Below, one piece after another: positions 6,732-36,428 of a DNA stretch of 39,954 nt. The position numbers were made by a program, and so were the translations under genes. The notes beneath the pieces are model-generated. The model searched no databases. It was not told where the DNA came from and saw only the letters and a program-made list of their open reading frames with translations. How positions within the stretch are numbered: position 1 is the first letter of the stretch; each line of letters starts with the position of its first letter. This stretch comes from Myxococcota bacterium (lineage in GTDB: Bacteria > Myxococcota_A > Polyangia > Polyangiales > Houyiibacteriaceae): positions 1-39,954 of the forward strand of contig JANQQS010000112.1 of NCBI GenBank assembly GCA_028284955.1. Direction: 5' to 3'.

Positions 6732-7742
6732 TCAACGCGCTTGCGATACAAGGAGATCGACAAATGTGTCGAGGCGGTCTTCGTTGTCGACCACTGCCGC
6801 GGTTCCTGCGGCGTCGAGCTCCTGCATATTGTCCACGTCGACGTTGTCGAGGTCGGCGTTTTTCTCGGGCAATCGCGTGTCGATACGCAAGTACTGAGAG
6901 GGCGCGTTCACCGCGTCGAAGATTTGTCGCAACTGAAAATCGACTGTTTCGCCGACGGCCGACATCATCACATTCACGATCGGCTTGGTCCATTCAGCAA
7001 GCCCCCACCCTTTCGCATCCTCGTAAGGATAGACGCGTTCGTGGGTGCCCGTGCCGAGGGAGAGAATGGCCATCTGCACCGCAGTCTTTCCCACAAACCG
7101 ACGCACTTCGGCATAGGCGCAGAGCGCCGGGTTGCTCGCGAACACGCCGCCGTCCACGAGAGTGTAGGTTTCGTCGGCGTCGGACCGAATCCGCGCGCAT
7201 TCAAAATACGTCGGCGCGGCAGATGTGGCGCGGGCGACGTCGCGCAATCGGAAGTTCCGATGGGCATCCCCCTGCGCACGATGCTGAGTAAAAAAGTGAG
7301 TCCGTCGTCGCTCGAGGTCGTACGCGGTAATCAAACTCGGCTTGAGCAAATCCGAAAGCTTGAGGTCGCTCAGGTAGGTGTCGAGCACGTTCTCGAGACC
7401 TTCGGCGGGGTATCTCTCGTCGAGCAGGCCCCATGCCGAACGCACGCGGTGCCACACCGAGGCATCGAAGATTTCGCGGCCGCGCTCGTAGTAGAGCTCG
7501 AGCGCTTGGCTCGCGCAAAAGCGTGGTCGCTCCGGGTCCTCTGCCCCCGGAGTGAGAAACACGCAGGTTAAGATGCCGCCCGTGCTTGTGCCCGCGATAA
7601 AGTCAAAATAGTCCGAGATGCATGCATCAGAACGCCCCGATGCTTCTCGGATTTTTTTCTCAAGAGCAATCAGCACGCGGGCCGGAATAATGCCGCGAAT
7701 GCCGCCGCCATCGATCGAGAGAATTCGATAAAGCTGCCCCAC
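6732..7742 (-). CDS. Patatin-like phospholipase
   Basis: This 336-residue protein is a cytosolic patatin-family acyl hydrolase, expected to release fatty acids from phospholipids or other esters. It has the oxyanion loop DGGGIRG (about 11-17), the nucleophile elbow GTSTGG (Ser about 53) and the catalytic Asp in LVDGGVFASNP (Asp about 197), so the Ser-Asp dyad is intact. It lacks a signal peptide. It starts at a GTG at 7742 with a GAGAGGG ribosome site inside the end of the upstream gene, whose TAG stop is only 2 bp away, so translation is probably coupled. Patatins can also be effectors of CBASS defence, but no nucleotidyl cyclase gene is nearby. Its setting among oxidases suggests it feeds fatty acids to them, which is inference. 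Confidence 0.92.
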   Translation of the reverse strand: MGQLYRILSIDGGGIRGIIPARVLIALEKKIREASGRSDACISDYFDFIAGTSTGGILTCVFLTPGAEDPERPRFCASQALELYYERGREIFDASVWHRVRSAWGLLDERYPAEGLENVLDTYLSDLKLSDLLKPSLITAYDLERRRTHFFTQHRAQGDAHRNFRLRDVARATSAAPTYFECARIRSDADETYTLVDGGVFASNPALCAYAEVRRFVGKTAVQMAILSLGTGTHERVYPYEDAKGWGLAEWTKPIVNVMMSAVGETVDFQLRQIFDAVNAPSQYLRIDTRLPEKNADLDNVDVDNMQELDAAGTAAVVDNEDRLDTFVDLLVSQAR

Positions 7743-7744
7743 CG

Positions 7745-8710
7745 CTAGGCCCTCTCACGAGGAACCACGCAATCCTCGGTGCACTGAAAATGCTCGTACC
7801 ATTGGTGGGCACGAATGCGGGTGGGGAACTCTCCCTGTTCGGCGTCGGCATGATCGGTGGGGTCGGTCTTGATCATGCAGCGGGCATCGATGCGGCTTTC
7901 TTCAAAACCATCCACCACGACCTCGCAGCGGTACTCCTGACCGGGACTGAGCGCCGCCGAGCCCAGCATCTTGAGCTCCACCACAGCGGTTTGCCCGCTC
8001 GCCAAGTCGACCGTCGGCGGAGAAGCGTTGAGCGACGCCGCGGCTCCTCCAGGGCCAACCCAGGGAGTCGATGCAATGGCGAAGGATCGCGTCTCTGTGC
8101 CTTCGTTTCGAATGGTCAGGCTCGCGGTTGGCTCCACGCCGCGCTCGATCTTCCAATCGATGCTCGGCTTCACGCGTGGCTTGCCAAAGTTGGCGACCGT
8201 TTTGACGCCTTTTCGATAGCCAGTTGTTTCCCCCGACTGGCTAACGGTGCATGAGTCGGTCGAGTCTTTGACCACGCTGCACAAAATCTTCACGCAGCGT
8301 TCCCATGTCGCCGAAAACAAAAACTCCGCGCGATAATCTTGGCAAGCGGTAAGCTGGTCGCTGTTCTGCAGACGCAGCTTGACCACGGTTTGATCGCCAG
8401 GCGCCAAGTTCGCAGATGCCGGGCTTACGGTAATGGCCGCCGTGCCCGTGCCCGCACCTGCCAGCGGGGTGGTCTTAAACGAAAACGTTCGCGCTTGCTT
8501 CCCGGTATTGCGAACCACGACCGAGGCTTCGGGAGTCGCGCCGCGGCCAAACACCCATCGAATGGTGTCCACGCATCGCGGCGGGCACTCGGTTTCGGGT
8601 ATCGTGCACGGGGCGCACTCGTCTTCCTTGGCATGACGAATTGCTTCGAGAAGACCTTGCGTCATCTCACGCAGGTGGGTACCGAGGAAGATTTCAAGGA
8701 CAGAGCTCAT
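7745..8710 (-). CDS. Non-secreted protein with two Ig-like domains
   Basis: The 321-residue product has no signal peptide. A short N-terminal helical region (SVLEIFLGTHLREMTQGLLEA) leads to a small Cys cluster (CAPC, CPPRC at about 33-46). Two similar beta-sandwich domains follow, at about 50-150 and 175-275. Each has the pattern of an Ig-like or ASH-type repeat: VVVRNTGKQARTFSF / LTIRNEGTETRSFAI, then NLAPGDQTVVKLRL / DLASGQTAVVELKM, then a conserved Cys-x-(D/E)-YRxE segment. An excellent AAGGAAAAGG ribosome site precedes the ATG. It is the gene before patatin and follows another Ig-like protein gene, so the three probably act together. The function is unknown; a scaffolding or lipid-binding role is a guess. 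Confidence 0.7.
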   Translation of the reverse strand: MSSVLEIFLGTHLREMTQGLLEAIRHAKEDECAPCTIPETECPPRCVDTIRWVFGRGATPEASVVVRNTGKQARTFSFKTTPLAGAGTGTAAITVSPASANLAPGDQTVVKLRLQNSDQLTACQDYRAEFLFSATWERCVKILCSVVKDSTDSCTVSQSGETTGYRKGVKTVANFGKPRVKPSIDWKIERGVEPTASLTIRNEGTETRSFAIASTPWVGPGGAAASLNASPPTVDLASGQTAVVELKMLGSAALSPGQEYRCEVVVDGFEESRIDARCMIKTDPTDHADAEQGEFPTRIRAHQWYEHFQCTEDCVVPRERA

Positions 8711-8737
8711 AACCTTTTCCTTTTGAGGGCAACGAGA

Positions 8738-9625
8738 TCATTCAACCGGCGGGATCGAATCTCCCGCCTGGGTGCGCAAGCGAAAACGAAACCGGCCTTC
8801 GCCGAGCCGCGCCAAAGTAAGATAGTCCCGGTCGATGTGGAGCGATTCGGGCACCGTCATCTCGAGCTCGAGGAGCCGCGTTTCGCCAGGGGGAAGCTCG
8901 CCGTAGCCTTTCTTAATTTTGATTCGAGCGACGGGCGGTTCATCTTCCGCAAAGCGCTTCACAAAATCATCAAGAAACTTCTGATACCCGTCTTGTCCTT
9001 GGTGGAGCGCAGCGGCGTGAAAGTGATGTGGCCAGCCGCGGTCGGATACATGCATGCGCGCGGGTACGCCGCGCGGGATGGTGGTGGGTATGTTGCCGGT
9101 GTTGGTCGCGCTGACGTTCACGCTAAGCTTTTCGCCCGGGACCACCGCAACGGATACCGCTTTGGGCGTGAACCTCGTTTTTCGGTGCTCGAGCACTTGA
9201 ATCAGGACCTTGCGCGCGCTTCGACCCGAGCCTTTGAGCACCGCGGTGAACGTTCCTGGTGCAAGGTGGGGAGGAATTGAAAGTGCGAGACGAAGCTCTT
9301 GGCTTTCGCCCGCACAAATGCGACCCGATGCGTGTAGCGCGACGTTGACGTGGGTCTGCTCCGCAGGCTGCTCTTTCGGCGAGGTCGGCGTCACACAGAC
9401 TCGTAGCTCTTCGGCTTCGGTCTGCGCCACCAGTCCTCGAACCCGCACATCATGGGTCAACGTATTGCGCGCCACGATGTATCCAACACACTTCGGCGGG
9501 GGTCCCGCGATCACCACCGGGGCGTCGGCAAACTCAAGCGCACCTTGTTCCGCGAGGGGAGTACGCGGCGCCGGCCGTGGAGGACACTTTTTTTTACCGC
9601 CTTCCGATGGCTCCTCTACCGACAT
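8738..9625 (-). CDS. Ig-like beta-sandwich protein of unknown function
   Basis: This 295-residue, non-secreted protein has a Lys/Pro-rich N-terminus (EGGKKKCPPRPAPRTP) and at least two beta-sandwich segments. One covers about 30-140 (YIVARNTLTHDVRVRG, RICAGESQELRLALSIP, GTFTAVLKGSG). The other covers about 150-285 (GEKLSVNVSATNTGN, ELPPGETRLLELEMTVP, GRFRFRLRTQAG). The phrases resemble Ig-like modules that read ...NTGN...PPGE..., the same style as the gene at 7745. The start ATG overlaps the end of the upstream gene by 10 bp, a sign of translational coupling. I do not recognise a named family. It belongs to a three-gene unit between the dioxygenase-like gene and the patatin gene. Confidence 0.7.
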   Translation of the reverse strand: MSVEEPSEGGKKKCPPRPAPRTPLAEQGALEFADAPVVIAGPPPKCVGYIVARNTLTHDVRVRGLVAQTEAEELRVCVTPTSPKEQPAEQTHVNVALHASGRICAGESQELRLALSIPPHLAPGTFTAVLKGSGRSARKVLIQVLEHRKTRFTPKAVSVAVVPGEKLSVNVSATNTGNIPTTIPRGVPARMHVSDRGWPHHFHAAALHQGQDGYQKFLDDFVKRFAEDEPPVARIKIKKGYGELPPGETRLLELEMTVPESLHIDRDYLTLARLGEGRFRFRLRTQAGDSIPPVE

Positions 9626-10128
9626 TTCTCAGTCTCGCGCGGCTCATAGTCTTCAGCAATCGCCATTCCTTGGCCACACGCTGAGAACTTGAAGAGCGGG
9701 ACACCCAAAACCTGCAAGGTGAAGCTGTAGTTCAGCGGCAAGTGAATGCGAATGGGACGGAACGAGAGCTCGAACTGAATCCGAGGCAACTCTCGAATTC
9801 GGATATCGTCGAGACCGAGGTCGACTTCAGAAGTCGTCCGGACATTGTCGAGACCGAGATCGACTTGCGAGGTGGTTCGAATCTCCGGAATCTGGTCGAT
9901 CGAGGCGTTCACCCGCACTGGTGCAAGCTCACGCAAACGAACATTGTCCAGCCCCAGATCAAGGCCCACGTTCCCGCCGGCCGTGACGTTGGCTCGAATG
10001 TCGTTCAAGCCGACATCCAACCCGCCGCCGAGCTCAAGCCCTCCGCCTACTTCGACGTTGACGTCGGACAAACCCACATCGAGGGAGCCACTTACTCCGA
10101 TATCGCTGACATCTACGTCTGCTGACAT
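9616..10128 (-). CDS. GLD-x-x-R repeat protein
   Basis: The 170-residue product starts at an ATG with an AAGGTGG ribosome site 7 bp upstream. The first two thirds carry about five imperfect repeats of D-(V/L)-G-L-x-(D/N)-(V/I)-(R/N): DVGLSDVNV, DVGLNDIRA, DLGLDNVRL, DLGLDNVRT and DLGLDDIRI. Gly, Val and Asp are abundant and there are few aromatics, so a regular beta structure such as a solenoid or roll is likely. The C-terminal third is different and compact (RIQFELSFRPIRIHLP, VLGVPLFKFSACGQGM, ETEKCR) with two Cys. There is no signal peptide or membrane segment. The function is unknown. It is the first gene of the accessory trio that follows the dioxygenase-like gene. Confidence 0.75.
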   Translation of the reverse strand: MSADVDVSDIGVSGSLDVGLSDVNVEVGGGLELGGGLDVGLNDIRANVTAGGNVGLDLGLDNVRLRELAPVRVNASIDQIPEIRTTSQVDLGLDNVRTTSEVDLGLDDIRIRELPRIQFELSFRPIRIHLPLNYSFTLQVLGVPLFKFSACGQGMAIAEDYEPRETEKCR

Positions 10129-10205: not shown

Positions 10206-12545
10206 TTATCCAAACGCTCGCAAAGGGTGCCGCAGCGGGTCGAGCTCGCCGACATCCCATGGCTCAAACGCATTGTCTACGTTCGCGAGGCCTGTTCGCG
10301 CAAGGCGCGGATAGTGACGAAGCAACACGTTCTTGAACGTGGCGTCGTCGATCCACTGCAGACCCTGCGCTGTATATACCTCTTCGGTGTAGTATTCGGT
10401 GAAAAATCTGTCCGCCTGAAGCCGGCGAGACGCATTGAGGATGAACACCTCGAATAGCGTCTCTCCGAAGCCGAAACCTTCTGGGCGATGCGCCTCGGCG
10501 AGATTGCCGACGAGCAAATCGATGTCCTCGACGCTGTCGTAGACCTGTTTGAGCGCGGCGACCGCGTCTCGATCATCAGTCAAGTCTTCGAAATACTGAA
10601 TCGGGGTAAGCCCGAACAGGCGCCGAAACTGGTTGTAGCGTGGCACGCCCCGTTCCCGGTCGCGCAAAATATCCACTGCGCCCAGGTCGAAGAAGCCAGC
10701 CCCTGGAACGCTTAGGTTCTGAAGCGTTTCGGGATAGTTGTTGAGGACGAGCTGCCCCGAATGCTGAACGCCAAACGAATAGAATAGATCGTCCATGGAA
10801 AACTCTTCGGTCATCGCATGCGAGGCCGCCTGCCGCGTCTGCGCAAGACCCACCGTCTTGACCGGACCGTCGGCGCCATCGATTTCGTGCAGGCCGATGG
10901 TGTCCGGCAAGAGCGAGTGCAGGCGATAGACCGCGAGAAACTCGCGTGTCAACGAATAGGGCACGCCATGATTGTCGGTTTCGTTGCCCACGAGCCCGCC
11001 TGCGATGGGGTCGGTAACGTTCACATCGGCAACGGTCTTCCGGGAGTCTTTTTTGCGGAAGAGATTGGTGAGCAAACCGAACCAGTTGGTATGCATCGCC
11101 GCGTTGAGCGACTTGTTGGGAAGCACCGCGGGAGTCCATTCGACGGTATGAATCTTGGCCATCACCGCCGCGTTGATGAGCCGCGCGGTATCGAAGAGGC
11201 GCTGGTCATCAAAGGTCGGATGATGCTCTGCAAGCATATCGCAAATCGCGTTGTGCTCCTTGACGAAGAGCGTGTGCAACATGCTCAGCCCGACCCACCA
11301 GTTGCGCCGAAAGCCCGTCTGCTCCACGCCATCGGCGAGCACCGGGAGGTTTCCAGTTTTTGAGTCGACGGCGAGCTTGCCGCCCTGGTGGCTGCGCAAG
11401 GATTGAATGGTTTTCTCGTCGCTGCCGTAGATCTGAGACCCGTCCCACCAGCTCGTCACCTCGTTCAGATGCACATTCTCACGCTCGCCGTCCCGGCGGG
11501 TGGGATCTTTTTGGGTCGGGCGAACCAACATATGCGTCTGACGCAGGGTCCTACGCACGGGGTCGTCTTCGGAAAGTGGAATCCGGTAGGGCTCCGCATT
11601 GGACGGATCCCCGTAGCTTACCCAGTCATGATTCATAAACTGAATCCACGACGCCGCGGTAAGGTTCAAGAAGGGAACGGGCTTGAAGCCGTCTTTGCGC
11701 GTGAACAGCACCCGGCTCACCACTCGGGGGTTCGGCGTCATCAGCCGTGGTCCGGTCTCTCCTGGAGTGCTCGCAGGGTCGGTATTGAACCCGAAGCGGG
11801 TGCCCGCCGCGCCGGCCATGGGGTCGCGCAGGTCGTTGTAGCTGCCATCCGCGCTCCGCGCTCGATAGGTTCCCGCCGGCGGCGCGCCCGAGCTTCTGAA
11901 AAAGCCCGTTCCTTCTCGCTTCCCGTACGCGGGAAAGAGCTGCTCTCGGTTCAAGCGCTCGCGCCGCGCCGCGAGCATGAGCGTGCCTCGAAGAAACCCG
12001 TACTCATACCAACTGGTCCATGGGGAGTTGCGGTTCGTCTCTCTTCCTAGGGCGGAGGCAAGAAACTTGACGCTCTTGCCTAACTTGAAGCCACCGAGCT
12101 GCCCGATTCCGTCGCGTACCAAATCGCGAGGCGTTTTTTTTCGAGCCTGTGCGCGCGGGTCGGCTGGCGTCGCCGTGGTTTGCTCTTGAGCGCCCGGTTT
12201 CGGACCGCCCGAGACCTCTGCCGGATCGAACTGAGAAGGCGTGGGAACCGGTCGGGCAATGTCTGATTGGTGGTTGGCCACGCTGAGATCGAGCAGCCGG
12301 CGAAGCTCTCCATCCGCGCGTCCCTTCTTGATCGCGGCACGCAGATGATCCGCGGCTTCGCTATAGCGCTCGAGCCGAAAACACGCCGCGCCTCGCAACG
12401 CATCGGCGGCTCCCGAGGAGTCCGAAATCCCTTCCAATGTGTTCAGCGCAGCCTGTACATCGCCGCGCTCGAGGAGACTCTCAGCTTCGCGTAGTTCTTT
12501 TGGCGAAGAACCGGTGCCCGTTTCGGTAGTCGTCATTCTCGTCAT
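10206..12545 (-). CDS. TPR-fused fatty-acid alpha-dioxygenase-like haem peroxidase
   Basis: A 779-residue member of the animal-type haem peroxidase superfamily, closest in sequence pattern to fatty-acid alpha-dioxygenases. Those add O2 to the alpha carbon of fatty acids to give 2-hydroperoxides. Visible landmarks: distal His306 in FMNHDW; the substrate-carboxylate pair His466 and Thr471 in KIHTVEWT; catalytic Tyr540 and proximal haem His543 in YRLHSLLP; an Arg at 707/708 in ASRRLQADRFFT. Other shared phrases are LFVKEHNAICDML, NHGVPYSL and RDRERGVPRYNQFR. Residues 15-95 are an extra TPR-like helical domain not present in plant enzymes. No signal peptide. A GGGAG ribosome site precedes the ATG, and the upstream gene ends 2 bp away. 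Activity on free fatty acids is inferred from the conserved residues. Confidence 0.88.
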   Translation of the reverse strand: MTRMTTTETGTGSSPKELREAESLLERGDVQAALNTLEGISDSSGAADALRGAACFRLERYSEAADHLRAAIKKGRADGELRRLLDLSVANHQSDIARPVPTPSQFDPAEVSGGPKPGAQEQTTATPADPRAQARKKTPRDLVRDGIGQLGGFKLGKSVKFLASALGRETNRNSPWTSWYEYGFLRGTLMLAARRERLNREQLFPAYGKREGTGFFRSSGAPPAGTYRARSADGSYNDLRDPMAGAAGTRFGFNTDPASTPGETGPRLMTPNPRVVSRVLFTRKDGFKPVPFLNLTAASWIQFMNHDWVSYGDPSNAEPYRIPLSEDDPVRRTLRQTHMLVRPTQKDPTRRDGERENVHLNEVTSWWDGSQIYGSDEKTIQSLRSHQGGKLAVDSKTGNLPVLADGVEQTGFRRNWWVGLSMLHTLFVKEHNAICDMLAEHHPTFDDQRLFDTARLINAAVMAKIHTVEWTPAVLPNKSLNAAMHTNWFGLLTNLFRKKDSRKTVADVNVTDPIAGGLVGNETDNHGVPYSLTREFLAVYRLHSLLPDTIGLHEIDGADGPVKTVGLAQTRQAASHAMTEEFSMDDLFYSFGVQHSGQLVLNNYPETLQNLSVPGAGFFDLGAVDILRDRERGVPRYNQFRRLFGLTPIQYFEDLTDDRDAVAALKQVYDSVEDIDLLVGNLAEAHRPEGFGFGETLFEVFILNASRRLQADRFFTEYYTEEVYTAQGLQWIDDATFKNVLLRHYPRLARTGLANVDNAFEPWDVGELDPLRHPLRAFG

Positions 12546-12547
12546 GG

Positions 12548-13699
12548 CTATCTCCCAACTCGTTCCCCGACGTGTCCAAACCCGTGCGCTCCATCGTGCC
12601 CATTGGTGCTGTGTCCGTTGGCGCGATCCTCAGTCGCAGCGCCTTCCGAACCGGAACCTGCGCCCGCCAAATCTCCATCACGACGAACGATGCTCCATGC
12701 AAACTTCGGCATGATTCGTTGTGCCGGACGGAGAAAACGTTTCCATCCTGTCGCGCTGTGCTCTCGAGCCCCGGCCGCAGCGAGCCAAACCGATTTCAGC
12801 ATGTCTGGCACCACGTGATTTGCCGGGCATGCGCTCCAGGTATCGTCGAGAAACGCGATTTCGAGGTCGCCAGTATTCCGGTACGCCCGTCCGAGCAAGA
12901 ACACAACCAGCGTTCGGCGTTCCAGCGGCTTGTTCAGGAACGAAGCCGACACGTCGCGCGCGCAACCGCGGAGCACCGCCGGAGGCACGAACAAACACTG
13001 CCGCATCGCATCGTCCGCGTCTACACCGGACACGCCTCGACGTCCGGTCCCCTGACGATTGGCCAGGTTCCGAAGCGACCGAACAGATCGCGCAATGTTT
13101 TCCATCGCAATGCTCGTCGCGTGAATGCAGTGACGGTCATTTTGCGCCGCTGCGGAGACGCGTCGTTTCGCGTCTGCGAGCCGAGCTCGAGCGCTCGTCC
13201 CCCAGGTTCGCCAAGGCGGCGCGCTGGTCCACTCCGCAATGTAGCGCCCGGCTCGATAGCTCTCTGGGGTCGCGCGGTACTCTTCAAAAAAGAGGCGTCC
13301 ACACCACTGCTGAACGAATACGCCAACGTCGCGCTCACGCGGAATCGTCTCTTCCGCGTCATCGCCGTTATCGCCGTGTGACCCATGCGCCGGTTCCTGC
13401 GCAACATAGGCCCCAAGCTGCTCAATCTCTTTAGTGCGAACGCCCAACCGCGCCCGCAGGTTGTCATGCAGCTCGGCCTGCCGGCGCGCCCGCTCGTCAT
13501 CGTCTTGATCCAAGAACGCCGGAAGCACCCCGCCATCAAACCGTAAATCTACGGCCAACCGGCGATGCAAGAACCGATGCAACACACTCGCGCTCGGGTC
13601 GAGCGGCCGGACGACATCGGGATGCGCGTTGAGCCACCGGATTTCTTCCGGATCACTGACCAACACCACATCGACAAACCACGGCAGCCTGATTCTCAT
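12548..13699 (-). CDS. Unknown protein between the DyP and dioxygenase genes
   Basis: The ATG at 13699 (MRIRLPWFVDVVLVSDPEE) gives 383 residues and lies 4 bp after the DyP stop codon; a longer start at 13735 would overlap DyP. The N-terminus (VVLVSDPEEIRWLNAHPDVVR) reads like the beginning of a cytochrome P450, where the phrase is DPE-x-(V/I)-x-x-x-L. But no P450 Cys haem signature (FxxGxxxCxG), ExxR helix or oxygen-binding motif was found further on. Other features are a Trp/Arg-rich centre (AEWTSAPPWRTWGTSARARLADAKRR), a segment LVVFLLGRAYRNTGDLEIAFLDDTW, and a His/Gly/Asn-rich tail (NGHSTNGHDGAHGFGH) that may bind metal. It ends 2 bp before the dioxygenase start, so the two are almost certainly co-translated. 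Confidence 0.7.
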   Translation of the reverse strand: MRIRLPWFVDVVLVSDPEEIRWLNAHPDVVRPLDPSASVLHRFLHRRLAVDLRFDGGVLPAFLDQDDDERARRQAELHDNLRARLGVRTKEIEQLGAYVAQEPAHGSHGDNGDDAEETIPRERDVGVFVQQWCGRLFFEEYRATPESYRAGRYIAEWTSAPPWRTWGTSARARLADAKRRVSAAAQNDRHCIHATSIAMENIARSVRSLRNLANRQGTGRRGVSGVDADDAMRQCLFVPPAVLRGCARDVSASFLNKPLERRTLVVFLLGRAYRNTGDLEIAFLDDTWSACPANHVVPDMLKSVWLAAAGAREHSATGWKRFLRPAQRIMPKFAWSIVRRDGDLAGAGSGSEGAATEDRANGHSTNGHDGAHGFGHVGERVGR

Positions 13700-13703
13700 G
13701 ACA

Positions 13704-15242
13704 TCACTCCGTTCCCTCGCCCGGTTTGCCCACAAAGCCTTCTGCTTCGCCTAGGAAACGAAGCGCACGAATCCCCGGCAAGAAAAAATATGCGCCGCCC
13801 ACCACCGACACGAATCGCGGAAGACCAACGCATCGAGTCCGCACGGGGTTGCCAGGAACCCGAAAAATATTCTCGGCGCTGGCTCCCGTAATGGGGTCGG
13901 ACTCTCCGAACATCCCGTTGAACCGTGGGTCGACGATCCACGAATGCTGTACGAACTCAAACTGCCGCGAAATATTCGCGTTGACCGCGACGAACATCAA
14001 CCCGCGATCGGCGTTATCCACCGCGCCGGGAGGGAGCTCTCCGCCGTAGATACGACCGCGCCGCAACATACGATGACGACGGTTGACGGTCAGCGACTCT
14101 TCGGTCCCCGGGCTCGGCTCGAGTGCGTCGCGGGGATTGGCTCGGCGAACATGGGCTCCCACGGGGCAGCTGAGACCTTCGCGGTCTTCACGGTGATAGC
14201 CGAAATCGTTCTCTCGTGCCTTCGACGGGTCGTCTTGATGGGGCGACGCCATGAGCGGCGCGCCGCTCGGCCAACGGCCCACCATTTGCGCGGCCAAACG
14301 CTCCTGTTCTTTGACGTTGGGCGAGCCGTCTTCGTTGCGCGTAAGCGCGTCGAGGGTTTCGCGGAACGCGACCACATCCTGGCGCAACTGCCGCATCACC
14401 AAATAGGTTCCGTTGCGGCCAAAATCGCGCAAGGTCGAACCTTCCACATCCGCCGGTAGCGATAGCGCGCCCGGACGCGATCCGTCGACCAACGGGCGGT
14501 CGGTGTAGAGACCATATTCGTTGGGATAGCCGAGAATGAATTCCCCTGCGCGCACTCGATGGTAGGTCGATGACGCCTCGTGGTAACCCTCGATGGCGGG
14601 CTGAGAAATCCCATCCGCGAAACCAAAATGTTCGCGACCCGACCGCGGACAAGTCGGCAACGCATGCACATCAGCCCATCCCGACTCCCGCCATAGTTCT
14701 TGCTCTGCTTGAAAGCGCTCGCTCGTCGCTGCGCGATCCGCGCCATACACCATCAATACCGCGTGAACGGTTTCCGATGTCGGCCCGCCCCAGGCCCAGC
14801 GCTCGGGCGCACTTTCCCCGACATCACCCAAAAAACGGCTGCGGTGATCCCCGTACATGCCCTCAATAAACTCCCGCGAGAATCCGCGGAGCGCGCGTTC
14901 CGGCAAACCAAGCGCGGCGAGGCCTGAGTAGGTGAACGCGAGATGCAGCGCAAACCTTTCCGCGCGCGGCGTTCCTGCCGCGACCTGGCTAGCCACACGC
15001 GCAATCCAGGCTCGAGCCTGGATCGGCTCACGAACCTGGAGGAACGCGTAGTGACAGCACGGCAGACGCCCGTACCCACGAAATACGATCCCCTGAACGT
15101 CATCGGTCTCGATCGCAGGCGCCGGCTCGGAGCGCTCCACGAGCCGCTTCATCGCACCGCTCTTGCGGCGCACCGCCGTGATCAGCCGCTCCGCCGCGGT
15201 GGACCCCAAAGCCCTAGACGCCCCTAGAGTAGTCGAAGCCAT
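13704..15242 (-). CDS. DyP-type haem peroxidase
   Basis: A 512-residue dye-decolourising-type peroxidase, which uses peroxides to oxidise varied substrates through a haem. The distal motif GFADG with catalytic Asp (about 210) is present in HFGFADGISQP, as are the proximal haem His in CPVGAHVRRANPRD (about 364) and the distal Arg region HRMLRRGRIYG (about 390-400). The C-terminal ferredoxin-like half includes NANISRQFEFVQ and SWIVDPRFNG. It is longer than short bacterial DyPs and resembles the larger class. No Tat or Sec signal is evident, so it is probably cytosolic. Its start overlaps the upstream gene by 19 bp. In this setting it may use fatty-acid hydroperoxides, which is inference. No encapsulin gene is nearby. 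Confidence 0.95.
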   Translation of the reverse strand: MASTTLGASRALGSTAAERLITAVRRKSGAMKRLVERSEPAPAIETDDVQGIVFRGYGRLPCCHYAFLQVREPIQARAWIARVASQVAAGTPRAERFALHLAFTYSGLAALGLPERALRGFSREFIEGMYGDHRSRFLGDVGESAPERWAWGGPTSETVHAVLMVYGADRAATSERFQAEQELWRESGWADVHALPTCPRSGREHFGFADGISQPAIEGYHEASSTYHRVRAGEFILGYPNEYGLYTDRPLVDGSRPGALSLPADVEGSTLRDFGRNGTYLVMRQLRQDVVAFRETLDALTRNEDGSPNVKEQERLAAQMVGRWPSGAPLMASPHQDDPSKARENDFGYHREDREGLSCPVGAHVRRANPRDALEPSPGTEESLTVNRRHRMLRRGRIYGGELPPGAVDNADRGLMFVAVNANISRQFEFVQHSWIVDPRFNGMFGESDPITGASAENIFRVPGNPVRTRCVGLPRFVSVVGGAYFFLPGIRALRFLGEAEGFVGKPGEGTE

Positions 15243-16492
15243 TCTTGTGCCTCATCGTCAGTCATGTCGCCTCGAAGCCCCGCCCGAAGGGCGGCGTTGC
15301 GCTCAATATTTACTGCCGTGAGCTCAGGATATGCGGAGTACCACACCGGTGTCGGGATCTGGTGGCGCCGGAGGTAGTCTTTAAATTCCTCCTCGTAGCT
15401 CGCGCCGCCAAATACCAACCAACGAGTTGCAGGGTAGCCATCTCCATTGCTGAACACCAGGTTCAGCCCCCACCCCACCAAATCGATAAAGTCATTGTTG
15501 TAGCTCTCGACGCTTCCATCGAAGTTGCTCGCAAACACCACCCGGCGACCGCCATCGAGAGGAATCCAGCGCGCAAAGTGGATGGTTTTCACTCCTGCCA
15601 GCGAGTCTCGGGTGAATAGATGACGCGTCCCATAACCGACCAGCGGCAGCACGGAACGAACCACCAACTGGCGAAGCGCGCCGCGCTTGACGTAGCCACC
15701 TGCGGTGTAGCCATTGTGGGCGAAAAAGTCTTCGAGCTCCGTCAGGCGACGTAGATGCTCGGGGGATGGCCGAATGTGGTCGGAACGATCGCGAAGCTCT
15801 TGCAGGCGCACCATGATCATGACCAGCACCGTCAACGGAACAACCACTGGGCTGAGCGCCAGTAGTCCTAGCGGTCGCGCCACGAAATCGATCGCATCTT
15901 TGGCGCGTTGCTTCATCGGCACCGCCGGCGGCGCCTCCATCGCCCACTGCAGCGATGGCTCGCGGCGTACAAAATCGACCATGCGCGCACGCGTTTGGCT
16001 AGAGGAGAGCGTCGAAAAATCATGTCCATCGGCGAATGACTGAAGCGCATCATGAAGCATCGCCTCATGTCGAATCTGAGACACGGTACGACCCGGTCGA
16101 TGCACGTAGTTCGCCGGTGTTTCCACTCGATGCTGGCGCAGGTAATCCAGGCGCTGGGCCGGCGACGCGGGCAGCGCAGGATACCCCCTGCCGTGTTCAA
16201 ATATTTGGTCGATCCCGTCGCCCGCCGAATCCACCAGCGCTTCGAGAAATCGTTCTGCGGGGCCATCACAGTCGGCGAGCAAGATCAGCTTCGGCTCGAG
16301 CGGTCGGCCTTCAAGGTCAACCGCATCCGGCATGCACACCAGCCGACCAAAATGACACGTATCGAGCGCGCCGAATGAGAGATAAGCGTTCTCCCCCGGG
16401 CTGTCGCGCATCCGACGCAGCACGGCCTCGAGCGCATCGACGCGAGCCGACTCGACCGGAACTACCAGGGTTAGGGCCTCTTGTTGTGCCAT
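15224..16492 (-). CDS. Membrane protein with internal duplication, unknown function
   Basis: The ATG at 16492 (MAQQEALTLVVPVES) has an AAGGA site 7 bp upstream; a TTG at 16507 is less likely. The 422-residue protein contains two related halves. Residues 46-150 carry CHFGR, LLADCDG, GRGYP and YLRQHRVETPANYV. Residues 304-405 carry IHFAR, FASNFDG, GDGYP and YLRRHQIPTPVWYS, in the same order and spacing. A hydrophobic helix (about 207-229, LLALSPVVVPLTVLVMIMVRL) separates them. The HFAR...(D/N)xDG pattern recalls ferredoxin-like folds of the DyP/chlorite-dismutase type, but no haem ligand can be assigned, so that link is speculative. It is co-transcribed with the DyP gene, which it overlaps by 19 bp. 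Confidence 0.75.
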   Translation of the reverse strand: MAQQEALTLVVPVESARVDALEAVLRRMRDSPGENAYLSFGALDTCHFGRLVCMPDAVDLEGRPLEPKLILLADCDGPAERFLEALVDSAGDGIDQIFEHGRGYPALPASPAQRLDYLRQHRVETPANYVHRPGRTVSQIRHEAMLHDALQSFADGHDFSTLSSSQTRARMVDFVRREPSLQWAMEAPPAVPMKQRAKDAIDFVARPLGLLALSPVVVPLTVLVMIMVRLQELRDRSDHIRPSPEHLRRLTELEDFFAHNGYTAGGYVKRGALRQLVVRSVLPLVGYGTRHLFTRDSLAGVKTIHFARWIPLDGGRRVVFASNFDGSVESYNNDFIDLVGWGLNLVFSNGDGYPATRWLVFGGASYEEEFKDYLRRHQIPTPVWYSAYPELTAVNIERNAALRAGLRGDMTDDEAQEWLRLL

Positions 16493-16555
16493 GACAGTGT
16501 CCTTCAATGCAGCTCCGAAGCGGGCTGTCGCGCGAAGCGTTCCCTCGCGCGAAGA

Positions 16556-17032
16556 CTACGCCGCGATCGTCTGTCCTGCGAACTCTTCTGCGGTGTCCTG
16601 AGCAAACTCGAGCGTGAAGTAAATCAAGCGCGTGTGATTCCAATACACGAGCCCAAGGTACAGCCGCGGCGCGACCTTGCGAATCTCGTCGCGAATGTAT
16701 CGCGCGACAACCGACCGCTTTGAGTAGTCGAGCACGATACATTCTTTTCCATCGAACCAGCTGCGGTCCCAATAGACGTCCGCAGTGATTGCGTGAACTC
16801 CTGCGGGCAAGATTTTATTCTGCAGCTCGCGCGCTTCTGAGTTCACGACTTTGCCCTGCCACGCCACCATGCGCACCAGCCGCTGCACCACGCGTTCAGA
16901 TGCACTGCCGGGTTTGAAAATCGCCGTGCCGGTCGCATCCCCGTGGGGAATGGGGCCGGTGGTGCCTTTGCGAAATAGCTCGTCCACCTCTGCGGGGGAC
17001 ATTCTTGAAATCTGATCAACGGTGATGGTCAT
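16556..17032 (-). CDS. Small conserved-looking protein of unknown function
   Basis: The 158-residue product starts at an ATG with a GGAG site 6 bp upstream. It has a helical N-terminus (ISRMSPAEVDELFRKG), then GPIPHGDATGTAIFKPG and a strongly patterned core: VNSEARELQNKILP, ADVYWDRSWFDGKECIVLDYSKRSVVARYIRDEIRKVAP, LYLGLVYW. The aromatic and acidic pattern SWFDGKECIVLDYS suggests a folded domain with a conserved pocket, and the alternating beta strands at the end could form a small barrel. There is no signal peptide and no named family is recognised. It is the first gene of the minus-strand oxidase block and is divergent from the lipase gene. Confidence 0.75.
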   Translation of the reverse strand: MTITVDQISRMSPAEVDELFRKGTTGPIPHGDATGTAIFKPGSASERVVQRLVRMVAWQGKVVNSEARELQNKILPAGVHAITADVYWDRSWFDGKECIVLDYSKRSVVARYIRDEIRKVAPRLYLGLVYWNHTRLIYFTLEFAQDTAEEFAGQTIAA

Positions 17033-25615: not shown

Positions 25616-27046
25616 CTAAGGAAGGATTTTTCCTGGGTTGAATAGGTTCGCGGGGTCGACCGCGCGTTTGATCCGGCGCATCAACTCGATTTCTTCCGGG
25701 CTGCGCGTGAAGTGCAGGTGGTCTCGTTTGAGCAAGCCGACGCCGTGTTCGGCGGAGATACTGCCTCGATGGGCCTGCACCGTTTCGTACACAGCGTGGT
25801 CGGCTGGATGGTGTTCAGATCCCGCGTGGGCCTTCGAATCTGAGTCGATGAGGTTGACGTGAAGGTTGCCATCGCCGAGGTGGCCGAAGATGTACGGTGC
25901 AAGGTTGAGCCGGCGCAGTCGCTGCTCCAGGGCGGCAGCAAACGAAGGCAGTTCGCTGAGCGGCACGGACACGTCGTATTTTCGAGGTTGCCCGCGGGCC
26001 GCGAGACATTCTCCGATGCGTTCGCGCAGGGCCCAGATGGCGCGTCGTTTTTCTGGGTCGCCAGCGATGATGCCGTCGAGCCCGGTATGTTCGTTGAGCG
26101 CAGGGTGTTCGTTGAGCGCAGGGTGTTCGTCGAGCGCGGTTTCGACCCATTCGAGCAAACCCGGTCGCCACGCATCGTGGGCGCCTTCCACTTCAGCCAC
26201 CACGTAACCCGGGGCGTCGCGCAAAGGTAGAGATCGCCCTAGCCTTTGGCTCACCAACCGAGCGCAGGCTTGATTCATGTACTCAAACGCGCAGAGCTCA
26301 AACGCATCCGAAGCGCGCGCAGCCTGCAAGAGATCGAGCGCCTCGCCCATTCCATTTGTCGCCCACATGATGACCTCTCGGCGTCCTGGCCTGGGGAGCG
26401 GGCAGAGCCGCAGGATGGCGCGCGTGATGATGCCCAGGGTTCCTTCGGTGCCGACGTAGAGCTGACGCAGGTCGAGTCCGGTGTTGTCTTTCTCTCGGGC
26501 ATCGTTGAGCCAGAGCACCTGCCCTTCCGGCGTGACGACTTCGAGCCCGAGCACCCAGTTTCGGGTGCTGCCGTATCGAAGCACGTGAATGCCGCCCGCG
26601 TTGGTGGCGATATTGCCGCCGATATGGCTGCTTCCTTTGGCGGCGAAATCGATAGGCCATTGCAAGCCTTGCTCCGCGCATCGCTGGTGTACCGCCTCGG
26701 TGATCGCGCCGGCTTGGACTTCCGCGGTGCAGGCCAGCGGATCGATGGAGACGATCGCGTTCATTCGCTCAAGACTCAGCACAAGCTCGCCCGCCGCAGC
26801 CACCGCTCCACCGGCGAGTCCCGTGCGTCCGCCGGAGGGAACGATCGGCACTTGGTGATCCGCACACAGACGCACAACCGAGACGACCTCGTCGGTCGTA
26901 CCCGGTCGCACCACCGCACACGGCCGCGGTTCATGCTGTCGCGTCCAGTCTCGGGCGTAGTCGCGCTGCTCGCCGACGTCGCTCACCCACCCCGTCGCGC
27001 CGACCACTGCGTGCACGGCGTTCAGAAACTCCGCGCTCGCCGACAT
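25616..27046 (-). CDS. FAD-linked 2-hydroxyacid dehydrogenase (GlcD/D2HGDH type)
   Basis: The 476-residue flavoprotein belongs to the family of glycolate oxidase GlcD, D-lactate and D-2-hydroxyglutarate dehydrogenases. The FAD-binding domain is visible in VPSGGRTGLAGGAV and SHIGGNIATNAGGIHVLRYGSTRNWVLGLEVV. The C-terminal substrate/oxidase domain has FGHLGDGNLHVNL (metal-binding His) and SISAEHGVGLLKRDHL. It starts at the ATG at 27046, whose A is shared with the TGA stop of the upstream hydrolase (TGATG). The two are therefore translationally coupled. A 2-hydroxyacid substrate is inferred from the family. A hydroxy fatty acid made by the dioxygenase block would be of interest but is not shown. 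Confidence 0.93.
   Translation of the reverse strand: MSASAEFLNAVHAVVGATGWVSDVGEQRDYARDWTRQHEPRPCAVVRPGTTDEVVSVVRLCADHQVPIVPSGGRTGLAGGAVAAAGELVLSLERMNAIVSIDPLACTAEVQAGAITEAVHQRCAEQGLQWPIDFAAKGSSHIGGNIATNAGGIHVLRYGSTRNWVLGLEVVTPEGQVLWLNDAREKDNTGLDLRQLYVGTEGTLGIITRAILRLCPLPRPGRREVIMWATNGMGEALDLLQAARASDAFELCAFEYMNQACARLVSQRLGRSLPLRDAPGYVVAEVEGAHDAWRPGLLEWVETALDEHPALNEHPALNEHTGLDGIIAGDPEKRRAIWALRERIGECLAARGQPRKYDVSVPLSELPSFAAALEQRLRRLNLAPYIFGHLGDGNLHVNLIDSDSKAHAGSEHHPADHAVYETVQAHRGSISAEHGVGLLKRDHLHFTRSPEEIELMRRIKRAVDPANLFNPGKILP
26088..26141 (-). repeat. 18-bp tandem repeat inside the dehydrogenase gene
   Basis: Two perfect units and one diverged unit of 18 bp (TGTTCGTTGAGCGCAGGG on the plus strand) encode DEHPALNEHPALNEHTGLD in a surface loop between the substrate-binding motifs. 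The period keeps frame, so it could expand or contract without breaking the gene. Confidence 0.85.
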
Positions 27047-27894
27047 CAGTGTGCGTCCAGCCACGCGATGGGCTCGTCCCAGAGCCGCTCGGCCGGAGGT
27101 CGAAAGTATCCAAAATGACCGATCGCCGACATCCCCACTGCGGAAGGAACCACATGCCTTCGCTCCAGGTTGGGATAGGCACGCATCATCGCATTGACCG
27201 CCGTCTCGGTGCCCCACTTGTCGTCGGCGAAGCTATAGGCAAGCACCGGCGCCTGAAACGTCTGATAGCGCTCGAGGGGGAGCGATCGGTCGCCGAGAAG
27301 GTAATCCGGATGACGACACCATCGGGACCATTCGAGCGCCGCGCCTTTGGGGAGGTCTTCACCACTGCCAAACCGGCTCCAAGGAACGTACCCCATGACG
27401 TTGGCCAGAAGCGGCATCGTGACGTGAACGTGAAATGCCACCACGGCTTTTTGTTCGGCGCCTTGCAAACGCCAATGACCGCTCTGAGAAGAAAACGTCA
27501 CCATCCCGTCGAGGGGAGGCAGATCGTCCAGCAATCCTGCAACCTGTCCGCCAACGCTATGACCCACAAAAAAAAGCTTCTTTGGCCTCAGTTCCGCGGA
27601 CGCCCAATCAGCGACGCCGGCCATGTCGAGCAACGCCCAATCGCGCATATGGGCGAGAAATCCTCGCAGCTGTTCAGGCCGAGAGCCACCGATCCCGCGG
27701 TAGTCATAGGTGACAACATGGTACCCCGCGCGTGCTAGGCGAGCGGCAAAGTGTCGATAAAAACGCTTCGGAACAGCGGTTGCGCTGTTGACCACGACGA
27801 CTCGGCTGGTCGGGGACGCAGGCTGAAATAGATGGCCCGACAGTCTAAATCCGTCGCGAGCCGGTATCGTGAGGTCGTCGTGGGCGGAGGACAT
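27046..27894 (-). CDS. Cytosolic alpha/beta hydrolase (S33/serine aminopeptidase-like)
   Basis: The ATG at 27894 (MSSAHDDLTIPARDGFRLSG) gives 282 residues without a signal peptide. VVVVNSATAVPKRFYRHFAARL and VVTYDYRGIGGSRP mark the first half, FFVGHSVGGQVAG holds the nucleophile (Ser in GHSVGG), and the lid region AFHVHVTMPLLANVMGYVPWSRFG follows. FADDKWGTETAVNAM probably gives the Asp and SAIGHFGYFRP the His. The family hydrolyses esters, lactones or amides; the substrate is unknown. Its stop TGA shares the A with the ATG of the FAD dehydrogenase. It is divergent from the kinase operon, with which it shares a 195-bp control region. Confidence 0.85.
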   Translation of the reverse strand: MSSAHDDLTIPARDGFRLSGHLFQPASPTSRVVVVNSATAVPKRFYRHFAARLARAGYHVVTYDYRGIGGSRPEQLRGFLAHMRDWALLDMAGVADWASAELRPKKLFFVGHSVGGQVAGLLDDLPPLDGMVTFSSQSGHWRLQGAEQKAVVAFHVHVTMPLLANVMGYVPWSRFGSGEDLPKGAALEWSRWCRHPDYLLGDRSLPLERYQTFQAPVLAYSFADDKWGTETAVNAMMRAYPNLERRHVVPSAVGMSAIGHFGYFRPPAERLWDEPIAWLDAH

Positions 27895-28089: not shown

Positions 28090-30042
28090 ATGACTGAATT
28101 TCGGAAGAAGGCTGATGTCCGTTCGAACGCCCCACCCTTGAGTGAGCACGGATCGGCGGAGCGCAATATTTCCGAAGCGTCGATTCCTCGAGCCTCACGC
28201 TCTGAGCCGCCCGATCGCAGTACCGTAGAACACCGGATTGGGCGTGACGCGCCGGGTTCGAGCGCCCCCAGGAATAGCGAGATGGTCGCGGCTCCGGGCG
28301 CGTCCTCGGCGCTGGTCGGGGACGGCACGGTGCAACGAATAGGGAAATATTGCACCATCGCCAAGCTGGGGCATGGCGGAATGGCGGACGTCTTTCTCTC
28401 CGTCGCGCAAGGCCCGAGCGGGTTCAACAAGCTGGTGGTGCTCAAGGCGCTTCGCACGAACCTCGCCGCAGACCCCGACTTTATTGCAATGTTCTTGGAC
28501 GAAGCGCGGTTATCGGCGCAGCTAAGCCACCCGAACGTCGTGCAAACCATCGAGGTGGTCACAGAGGGTGCGGCGCCCGTGATCGCAATGGAATATCTCG
28601 ACGGGGTCTCCCTTTCGCACCTTCGCCGCCGAGCGCAGCGCACCTCGACGTGGTGCACCGATTTCTATCTTCGCGCGCTCATCGACGCGCTGGGAGGCTT
28701 GCACCACGCCCACGAGCTCTGCGACTACCGCGGCGAACCGCTGTTTCTGGTGCACCGAGACTTCACCCCCAACAACATCTTCATCACTTTCGACGGCCAC
28801 GTGAAAGTGCTCGACTTCGGTATCGCGAAGGCGGCAAGTGGGCTGTCTCATACTCGCGAGGGCCTGTTCAAAGGCACCGTCCGATATATGGCGCCAGAAG
28901 CCATCAACGGCCGGCCCATCGACCGGCGCGCCGATGTCTACGCCGCCGGAGTCATGCTTTGGGAAGCGATCGCGGGGCGGCGCATGTGGAACGACTTGCC
29001 CGATGTGGGCGTCATGCGCCAGGTCTTCGATGGCCAGATTCCTTCGCTCGACGAAGCCGCGCCCCACGCACCCCAAAACCTTCGCAACATCTGCATGCGC
29101 GCGCTCGCCGCAGACCCAAACGACCGTTACCCCACGGCGCTCGAAATGCAGCTCGACCTGGAAGCCGCAGCGGCCGAACAACCCACCGCAGCGGGCACAC
29201 GAGAGCTTTCCGCCCTGATGAACGACCTTTTTTCGGATCGCCGAGCGCAAGTTCGGGCGACCATCGAGCAACAGCTCACGAGGCTGCAACGCGGGGCCTC
29301 GGAGCTACAGCGCGGAGCATCCGAATCTGCGCCCCCGCTGGCCATGGCAAACCTTCCCGAGATGTCGAACGTGGGGTCGTGGATGTCCCAGTTCGCAGCG
29401 GCCCCACGTGATGCAAGCCGCGTCGGAGCCCGCAAAACGTGGTGGCGGATGGCCGCAGCAGGAGGTTTGTTGGCGATCGCCGGTTTGGTAGGATGGAGCT
29501 GGGCGCAGCGCCCAACCCTCTCCGACGAGCTGAAATCGGGGCCCGTCAATGCAACCGCACAGAGCGGGAATGCATCATCCGCGCGCGCCCCCGCCGCACC
29601 CCAAAACGTCGCCGGCACGACAGGCGCCGCACAACGCAACTCCGTGAAGCTCAAGATCGACGCCGCACCAGCCCACGCGATCATTTCCGTGGACGGCGAA
29701 GCGCTCGGCACAAACCCCGCCGTACTCGAGCATACCCGCGACGGGTCGGTGAAAAAAGTTGCCGTCCGCGCTCGGGGTTTTTTGCCGCGCTTCGCAGAAG
29801 TGGTGATGGACAAAGACTCAGAGCTTTCGCTCAGGCTTCGCCCCGCGTCTCGGCGACGCAACGCTCGTCCTGAGCCGCCGGAGAACGAGGCAAACCCGAA
29901 AGAAACCGAAGTCACGTCTCCGGGGCCCCGTGCTGGACGCAAGACAACCGAAGGCGCGCCCAGGCGTATTCTCACCAAAAGCCCTTGGGCAGAACCCCAA
30001 GCCGCTCCGCCGATCGTCGATACAAGCCCGTGGAAACGCTAG
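28090..30042 (+). CDS. Membrane Ser/Thr protein kinase with PEGA-like tail
   Basis: The 650-residue product is a Hanks-type kinase. It has a disordered N-terminal 85 residues, then the kinase domain: G-loop LGHGGMADVF (about 93-102), VAIK-like Lys in VVLKAL (about 119), HRDFTPNN (about 222-229), DFGIAKA (about 242-248) and GTVRYMAPE. All catalytic residues are present. A helix (about 455-470, MAAAGGLLAIAGLVGWSW) crosses the membrane. A Ser/Ala/Pro linker leads to a PEGA-like domain (KIDAAPAHAIISVDGEALGTN...) at about 535-605, then a basic tail. The ATG at 28090 has no strong ribosome site; ATG 28282 is an alternative. It is followed by three genes on the same strand. Confidence 0.93.
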   Translation: MTEFRKKADVRSNAPPLSEHGSAERNISEASIPRASRSEPPDRSTVEHRIGRDAPGSSAPRNSEMVAAPGASSALVGDGTVQRIGKYCTIAKLGHGGMADVFLSVAQGPSGFNKLVVLKALRTNLAADPDFIAMFLDEARLSAQLSHPNVVQTIEVVTEGAAPVIAMEYLDGVSLSHLRRRAQRTSTWCTDFYLRALIDALGGLHHAHELCDYRGEPLFLVHRDFTPNNIFITFDGHVKVLDFGIAKAASGLSHTREGLFKGTVRYMAPEAINGRPIDRRADVYAAGVMLWEAIAGRRMWNDLPDVGVMRQVFDGQIPSLDEAAPHAPQNLRNICMRALAADPNDRYPTALEMQLDLEAAAAEQPTAAGTRELSALMNDLFSDRRAQVRATIEQQLTRLQRGASELQRGASESAPPLAMANLPEMSNVGSWMSQFAAAPRDASRVGARKTWWRMAAAGGLLAIAGLVGWSWAQRPTLSDELKSGPVNATAQSGNASSARAPAAPQNVAGTTGAAQRNSVKLKIDAAPAHAIISVDGEALGTNPAVLEHTRDGSVKKVAVRARGFLPRFAEVVMDKDSELSLRLRPASRRRNARPEPPENEANPKETEVTSPGPRAGRKTTEGAPRRILTKSPWAEPQAAPPIVDTSPWKR

Positions 30043-30122: not shown

Positions 30123-31211
30123 ATGGATCTTGACGCTTACAGCCGTTCCCCCGAGCCAACGTTCTTTGCGCCAACGTTCTTTGTCCTGAACAGCGGGCTC
30201 GCTGCCGTGCTGGGTCTGATGATGACGATTTCGCTTCCCGCGGTCGGACACGCACAGACGCCAGACGACGAACCGAGCGCGGAAGAGTCAGACGATGAGA
30301 TTTCGTCGGCGACCCTGCAGCAAGCGGAAGAGCACTTCAAACGCGGCGTCGAGCTTTACGAAGATCGCGATTTTGATCGCGCGCTGTTCGAGTTTCGACT
30401 GGCCTACGAAACCGCGCCCCACTTTCGGGTGCTGTACAACATCGGGGTATGTTACCTCGAGTTGCACGACTACGCGGGCGCGATTCGCACGCTTGAACGA
30501 TTTCTTGGCGAAGGGGGCGCAGAGATCGACCCTACGCAGCAACGCGAAGTGCGATCGGACATCGAAAAAGTGCAAGGCCGCGTGGGTCATTTGCGCGTCA
30601 AGACCAACGTCCCCGCCGCAGATGTAACCGTCGACGATGAATCGGTGGGCCAATCGCCGGTGGAAGAAGCGCTGCTCGTCAATATCGGCACCCACGTCGT
30701 TCGCGCGTCGCGTCAAGGCTACGTCGCCACGCGACGCGTGGTCGAGGTCATCGGCGGTCAAGAACGGACCGTATATTTGGAGCTCACCCCCCAAGGCGTG
30801 TCGACATCCAAAGCGACCCAGCCGTCATCCGAGGAGCTCGCGGCGCGCAACGCGCGACGTGCGAAGCGACGCAAGCGAGGAATCATTGCCGGGAGCGTCA
30901 CTGCTGCGCTCGCCGCAGGAGCCGTAGCAGCGGGGGTGCTCGCATGGATCGCCAACGAAGACTTGAAAGACGAACGCGCGGCGCGACCTGGCGACGCCGA
31001 CCAGATCGACGACGCACGAGATCGCACTTTTCGCCGGAGCGTAGCGTTCGATGCGCTGGCCATCGGAGCCGTGGTGATGACCGGTGTGACGCTTACGCTT
31101 CGATACGCAGGAGCCCGGAAGGACCGCGACAAGGATGCCGCAACAAGACAAACGCCATCCCTCGCGGTGGATGTGGGCCCCGCAGGGGCTTCCCTGCGCG
31201 GGCGGTTCTAG
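30123..31211 (+). CDS. Exported TPR/PEGA membrane protein
   Basis: The 362-residue product starts after an AAGGTGAG ribosome site. It has a signal segment (LNSGLAAVLGLMMTISLPAVGHA-Q at about 22-45) and an acidic linker. A TPR-like region of about 65-130 has the phrases AEEHFKRGVELYEDRDFDRALFEFRLAYETAPHF and LYNIGVCYLELHDYAGAIRTLERFL, i.e. two repeats. A PEGA domain follows (LRVKTNVPAADVTVDDESVGQSPVEE). Two hydrophobic helices come near the end (GIIAGSVTAALAAGAVAAGVLAW and VAFDALAIGAVVMTGVTLTL). It lies 80 bp after the kinase gene and the next gene abuts it without a gap, so it is part of that operon. It may be a target or partner of the kinase, by context only. Confidence 0.85.
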   Translation: MDLDAYSRSPEPTFFAPTFFVLNSGLAAVLGLMMTISLPAVGHAQTPDDEPSAEESDDEISSATLQQAEEHFKRGVELYEDRDFDRALFEFRLAYETAPHFRVLYNIGVCYLELHDYAGAIRTLERFLGEGGAEIDPTQQREVRSDIEKVQGRVGHLRVKTNVPAADVTVDDESVGQSPVEEALLVNIGTHVVRASRQGYVATRRVVEVIGGQERTVYLELTPQGVSTSKATQPSSEELAARNARRAKRRKRGIIAGSVTAALAAGAVAAGVLAWIANEDLKDERAARPGDADQIDDARDRTFRRSVAFDALAIGAVVMTGVTLTLRYAGARKDRDKDAATRQTPSLAVDVGPAGASLRGRF

Positions 31212-36352: not shown

Positions 36353-36364
36353 ACCCTAAAGGGT
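36353..36364 (+). promoter_or_regulatory. ACCC-N4-GGGT palindrome upstream of the second kinase
   Basis: ACCCTAAAGGGT is a perfect palindrome preceded by TTG and followed by GAA, 65 bp before the kinase ATG. It matches the ACCC-N4-GGGT elements before the first kinase (28009-28037). The rest of the 250-bp gap (36179-36428) has no ORF. It contains two TTTTTGGG-type runs from 36282 and 36300. Confidence 0.35.
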
Positions 36365-36428
36365 GAATGTCTTGGTGAAGACAATTCGTGCACATGCAGG
36401 ATTGAGCTACCCTTGGGGAGGGGGACGT

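What the first reader, a model, noticed from the sequence alone, without database searches (positions are those of the whole stretch)
7745..10128. Accessory trio: GLD-x-x-R repeat protein and two Ig-like proteins
Three non-secreted proteins without enzyme motifs sit between a dioxygenase and a patatin in one operon, with overlaps of start and stop codons. One carries five D-(V/L)-G-L-x-(D/N)-(V/I)-(R/N) repeats. They look like structural, carrier or assembly factors, and could build a multi-enzyme body for handling hydrophobic substrate.
Basis: inference. Interest (0 to 1): 0.6.

Follow-up and report, generated by a model that had tools for sequence, protein, structure and literature searches.

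The report
Conserved scaffold genes beside lipid-enzyme genes
Three small, non-enzymatic genes in this bacterium belong to an uncharacterised gene set that recurs in distant bacteria beside enzymes handling oily molecules (oxidised fatty acids, isoprenoids, storage plastic), so it is probably a reusable protein scaffold or coat for water-repellent material rather than a peroxidase accessory.

Summary
rep170 carries exactly five D-[VL]-G-L-x-[DN]-[VI]-[RN] repeats and is followed by two PapD/Ig-like proteins, co-directional between a fatty-acid alpha-dioxygenase and a patatin. No Pfam or NCBIfam family fits rep170. A scan of bacterial genomes for its repeat, with profile follow-up, found the same genes, rep-Ig1-Ig2 plus a fourth Ig gene (Ig4), in nine other genomes: Tectomicrobia, NC10 and a relative, two Hahella, a Solirubrobacteraceae MAG and three more Gammaproteobacteria. 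The window lacks Ig4 but has a duplicated domain in Ig2. The module is constant and its partners vary: heme oxidases (window, Hahella), polyprenyl synthase (four loci), PHA synthase (one), unclear (two). The broader idea, a non-enzymatic module serving hydrophobic substrates, is strengthened. Best reading: a cytoplasmic scaffold or coat holding enzymes at a hydrophobic inclusion or surface. Presence, conservation and partners are shown; the scaffold role is inferred.

The parts
9616..10128 (-). rep170: repeat protein, five D-[VL]-G-L-x-[DN]-[VI]-[RN] repeats plus conserved C-terminal segment (R-x-H-x-P ... CG-x-x-x-x-I-x-E-x-Y-x-P ... E-x-C)
   Evidence: Direct sequence and shuffle test; nine homologs by pattern and profile; no Pfam/NCBIfam/PADLOC match
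8738..9625 (-). ig295 (Ig1): beta-sandwich-like protein
   Evidence: Weak A2M_BRD/NEW3 Pfam signals; orthologs next to rep in all nine other loci
7745..8710 (-). ig321 (Ig2): N-terminal amphipathic helix, C-x-IPET-x-CPPRC, two PapD-like domains, conserved C-terminal AH-x-WY-x-HFQC
   Evidence: AF2 model, pLDDT about 90 for residues 50-147, lower for the second domain; fold search PapD/ASH; profile shows the domain duplicated here; alignment
6732..7742 (-). patatin-like phospholipase, CBASS CapV-like; GGG-x-RG, GTSTG and DGG motifs visible in the sequence
   Evidence: PF01734 2.4e-25; NF041079 195.8 bits, just under cut-off 200; PADLOC effector 2.8e-67
10206..12545 (-). fatty-acid alpha-dioxygenase with N-terminal TPR-like stretch
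   Evidence: An_peroxidase 2.9e-116; rice alpha-DOX E 3e-119, catalytic His and Tyr-x-x-His aligned
12548..13735 (-). u395: unknown protein; homolog next to another alpha-DOX in Qingshengfaniella
   Evidence: blastp E 2e-27 to the L022 ORF next to alpha-DOX; no Pfam or PDB match
13704..15242 (-). DyP-type peroxidase
   Evidence: TIGR01413 107.4 bits, cut-off 100.5; homologs in both Hahella loci, best E 5e-122
15224..16507 (-). u427: DyP partner, fused to DyP in Rhizobium, Novosphingobium and Sulfitobacter
   Evidence: Hahella homolog E 8e-96
16556..17032 (-). u158: unknown, first gene of the run; adjacent to u427 in Hahella too
   Evidence: 48% identity, E 7e-39 to L073/L074

Best explanation
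The trio is a sporadically distributed copy of a conserved non-enzymatic module, rep-Ig1-Ig2(-Ig4). It most likely forms a cytoplasmic scaffold or surface coat that organises enzymes on a hydrophobic inclusion, aggregate or membrane patch. Proposed working: the PapD-like Ig proteins, which carry amphipathic N-terminal helices (Ig2, Ig4) and in several genomes basic tails, bind the hydrophobic surface and each other; rep links them through its repeats and conserved C-terminal beta-hairpin. In the window the cargo would be an oxylipin-type pathway: patatin frees fatty acids, alpha-DOX makes 2-hydroperoxides, DyP (with u427/u158) and u395 use or quench the peroxide. Shown: the module, its conserved order, its changing partners, the enzyme identities. 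Inferred: surface binding, scaffolding, the pathway order.
For: Same gene order in nine other genomes, split into two pairs only in L078. Partner enzymes change but act on hydrophobic substrates or polymers: DyP, GMC oxidoreductase and hydrolases in Hahella; polyprenyl synthase in L058, L076, L078 and L083, the last with a geranylgeranyl-reductase-family protein; PhaC 84 bp downstream in L085 (PF07167 4e-55). No enzyme family match and no signal peptide. PapD-like folds plus N-terminal helix; the window helix is amphipathic (2 of 500 shuffles as high). L083 has a Lys-rich, helical, phasin-like protein in the same run. In Hahella and the window the trio and u158-u427-DyP are linked in opposite order, so the linkage outlived rearrangement.
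Against: No experiment. No phasin model matches the module proteins or the L083 protein. Two loci (L066, L084) show no clear lipid or polymer enzyme. PHA synthase adjacency is a single case. The rep model is unreliable (mean pLDDT 35), so its structural role is guesswork. Amphipathicity is not significant in every homolog (L058).
Confidence: 0.45

Rival explanations
1. Dedicated accessory or maturation factors of the heme oxidases (heme or metal delivery, electron transfer).
For: Linked to DyP/u427/u158 in both window and Hahella; conserved Cys/His motifs in Ig2.
Against: Most loci have no recognised oxidase nearby; fourteen comparison alpha-DOX or DyP loci have no trio.
Confidence: 0.1
2. Soluble lipid or polyisoprenoid carrier/chaperone: the PapD-like domains bind a hydrophobic substrate or product and pass it between enzymes, without building any body.
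For: All recognised partner types have greasy substrates; PapD-like domains act as chaperones by strand donation in pili (established knowledge; fold match).
Against: No hydrophobic pocket was tested; the tandem repeats of rep suggest multivalent assembly rather than one-to-one carrying (inference).
Confidence: 0.25
3. Anti-phage or competition operon: patatin as an abortive-infection phospholipase (CBASS CapV-like), oxidases as toxic effectors, trio as sensor or assembly part.
For: Patatin scores 195.8 bits against the CBASS lipase model (cut-off 200) and E 3e-67 in PADLOC; a u427-DyP fusion lies near a DpnII restriction system and a CHAT protein in Rhizobium.
Against: No cyclase or other CBASS gene among the eight operon proteins scanned; elsewhere the trio lies with isoprenoid and PHA genes.
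Confidence: 0.1

Closest known systems
Phasins and PHA-granule proteins (PhaP/PhaF; PF09361, TIGR01841)
   Same: Non-enzymatic, helical N-termini, basic tails in some Ig4 proteins, found beside PhaC in L085 (a 'works like' comparison, by inference)
   Different: No match to any phasin model; beta-sandwich domains; a repeat protein; mostly beside non-PHA enzymes
PapD-like / ASH (ASPM-SPD2-Hydin) / MSP Ig-like domains
   Same: Predicted fold of ig321: Z about 10-11 over about 95 residues of PapD-type chaperones, CEP192 ASH domain Z 10.0, MSP Z 9.8; weak Pfam signals
   Different: No signal peptide, usher or pilin genes; private Cys motif and HWYDHF tail; 8-16% identity
Plant-type alpha-dioxygenase and other oxylipin enzymes (partner genes only)
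   Same: The window enzyme is an alpha-DOX with catalytic residues kept
   Different: Here joined in one run with DyP, u395, patatin and the structural trio
Encapsulin nanocompartments
   Same: Cargo classes overlap by name (DyP peroxidase, polyprenyl synthases; from general knowledge, not tested)
   Different: No shell-protein match among the operon proteins; PapD-like and repeat proteins instead of an HK97-fold shell

Membership tests
Phasin | Match to a phasin domain model (PF09361 or NCBIfam phasin models) | tested here: not met
   Trio. Ig4 proteins and the L083 helical protein:
Phasin | Localises to the PHA granule surface | not testable with these tools
   Needs microscopy or granule proteomics
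PapD chaperone-usher system | PapD-like domain fold | tested here: met
   Foldseek and VIA-align on the AF2 model of ig321; first domain strong, second domain of lower confidence
PapD chaperone-usher system | Signal peptide plus usher and pilin genes | tested here: not met
   N-termini read directly lack a signal sequence; the ten genes scanned around the trio include no usher or pilin
Alpha-dioxygenase (partner gene) | Distal His, proximal His and catalytic Tyr | tested here: met
   QFMNHDW and AVYRLHSLLPD aligned to rice alpha-DOX QFMVHDW and SVYRMHSLIPS
CBASS | CapV-type patatin effector | tested here: inconclusive
   195.8 bits versus cut-off 200; PADLOC E 2.8e-67
CBASS | CD-NTase cyclase in the operon | tested here: not met
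   PADLOC scan of eight operon proteins hit only the patatin; genes further away were not scanned

The most novel reading that the evidence does not exclude
rep-Ig1-Ig2-Ig4 is the protein coat or scaffold of an undescribed class of bacterial inclusion or metabolon, used in different lineages for oxylipin, isoprenoid and PHA chemistry, and unrelated to phasins, encapsulins or microcompartment shells.
Probability: 0.3. Interest if true: 0.85.

Novelty: new variant of a known kind. Interest (0 to 1): 0.6.

Why it matters
A conserved, uncharacterised gene module found in distant bacterial lineages beside three chemistries with oily products suggests a general way in which bacteria organise such chemistry. 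It names a small, testable set of proteins that might build lipid or isoprenoid compartments, and it gives bacterial alpha-dioxygenases a candidate structural partner.

Tried and rejected
Single-sequence searches with rep170 found nothing in 235 phylum genomes, plasmids or viral contigs; a profile search of 377 phylum genomes found only the own copy, so the operon is sporadic and perhaps acquired. tblastn of ig295 and ig321 in plasmids: none; rep and Ig2 homologs in plasmids: none. ig321 in 33 family genomes: only the own copy. Tandem-repeat finder on the DNA: no array; the repeat is at protein level with uneven spacing. Six of the 11 genome pattern hits were single chance matches in unrelated proteins and were discarded. 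AF2 of rep170 failed except for a C-terminal hairpin at pLDDT about 60. u395 was suspected to be P450-like; no Pfam or PDB support and no P450 heme-Cys motif seen in the alignment, so left unknown. A catalase-like guess for L073 16814-17992 had no database support. Literature searches for phasins with Ig-like domains, or DyP with dioxygenase and patatin, found nothing.

Full report
Observation. The window's minus strand carries u158, u427, DyP, u395, alpha-DOX, rep170, ig295, ig321 and patatin in one co-directional run from 17032 to 6732. The trio is at the stated coordinates. Five perfect repeats are present; shuffles never gave more than one. No terminator-like site on the coding strand falls in the 77 bp between alpha-DOX and rep170. 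rep170 and ig295 overlap by 10 bp; the other junctions are gaps of 27 and 2 bp.

Neighbours. The 'animal haem peroxidase' is a plant-type fatty-acid alpha-dioxygenase: its nearest solved relatives are rice and Arabidopsis alpha-DOX, and the catalytic His and Tyr-x-x-His are kept. Further upstream is a DyP peroxidase above the NCBIfam cut-off. u427 is fused to DyP in Rhizobium, Novosphingobium and Sulfitobacter. u395 has a relative next to another alpha-DOX in Qingshengfaniella. The patatin resembles CBASS CapV.

Finding relatives. rep170 had no detectable relative in 235 genomes of its phylum, in plasmids or in viral contigs. A degenerate DNA pattern for D-x-G-L-D-[DN]-[IVM]-x-x-x-E-x, scanned over the genome-contig collection (84,980 species), gave 11 hits. 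Five were real relatives with several repeats and the same C-terminal segment: Tectomicrobia L058, NC10 L060, two Hahella L061 and L063, and Solirubrobacteraceae L066. Profile searches added one genome of the NC10 group and three of the class of Hahella. In all nine, Ig1 and Ig2 relatives accompany rep, and a fourth protein, Ig4, with a helical N-terminus and one Ig domain, follows Ig2. In L078 the genes are split into two divergent pairs. The window has no Ig4; its Ig2 contains a second copy of the domain. The module is rare: 1 of 377 genomes in the window's phylum, 2 of 95 in the NC10 group, 4 of 258 in the Hahella class.

Partners. Hahella: alpha/beta hydrolase, GMC oxidoreductase, u158, u427, DyP and a further hydrolase. 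The three genes u158-u427-DyP stand upstream of the trio in the window and downstream in Hahella, so the link survived rearrangement. NC10, Tectomicrobia and L078: polyprenyl synthase and, in the first two, a Nudix gene that looks like IPP isomerase by eye. L083: polyprenyl synthase, a geranylgeranyl-reductase-family protein (TIGR02032 above cut-off) and a Lys-rich helical protein that looks like a phasin by eye only. L085: a class I/II-type PHA synthase 84 bp downstream. L066 and L084: no clear partner. Conversely, fourteen loci of other alpha-DOX or DyP genes carry none of the four proteins.

Structure. ig321 is predicted as an N-terminal helix (residues 3-28) and two PapD-like beta sandwiches, the first at about pLDDT 90. 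The best structural neighbours are PapD-type chaperones, ASH domains and MSP, about 2 A over 90-100 residues. Conserved across homologs are a C-x-IPE motif and a C-terminal H-x-WY-x-HF...C, which may bind metal or dock to a partner (inference). The rep170 model is unusable except for a C-terminal hairpin of about 33 residues at pLDDT about 60.

Mechanism. The constant part is structural and, without signal peptides, cytoplasmic; the variable part is chemistry on hydrophobic molecules. The simplest account is a scaffold or coat that holds enzymes at a hydrophobic surface. For the window this would be phospholipid to fatty acid (patatin), to 2-hydroperoxide (alpha-DOX), with DyP handling peroxide. 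The enzyme identities are shown; the scaffold function and the pathway order are inferred. A soluble carrier role is the main rival.

Comparison with known systems. It works like granule-surface proteins (phasins) in context, but it is not a phasin: no phasin model matches. The Ig domains share the PapD/ASH fold, but the chaperone-usher setting is absent. The partner alpha-DOX passes its membership test. CBASS membership fails on the missing cyclase among the operon proteins scanned.

Observation confirmed. Interpretation partly supported: its stated refuter (trio without oxidases) is met, yet the underlying guess of a structural module for hydrophobic substrates is strengthened by independent contexts.

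Noticed in passing
window 6732-7742: The patatin closely resembles CBASS CapV effectors although no cyclase was found in the operon; it may be a non-defence member of that family.
   Followed up: partly
L018, L019, L020: u427-DyP occur as single large fusion proteins (annotated Dyp-type peroxidase domain protein, hypothetical protein, cytochrome P450) on alphaproteobacterial plasmids; in Rhizobium near a CHAT protein, nucleases and a DpnII restriction system.
   Followed up: partly
L024 7986-15910 (Calothrix plasmid): An alpha-DOX-like peroxidase gene lies in a run with a GMC oxidoreductase and a patatin, recalling parts of both the window and the Hahella loci.
   Followed up: no
L084 10104-12614: A DUF362 protein with a long Lys/Thr-rich histone-H1-like N-terminus, divergent from the quartet; basic tails also end several Ig4 proteins (possibly a nucleoid tether as in PhaF; inference).
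   Followed up: no
window 28090-30042 and 36363-38555: Two Ser/Thr protein kinases, one next to a PEGA/TPR protein (30123-31211), and an FAD-linked oxidase (25616-27217) in the same window.
   Followed up: no
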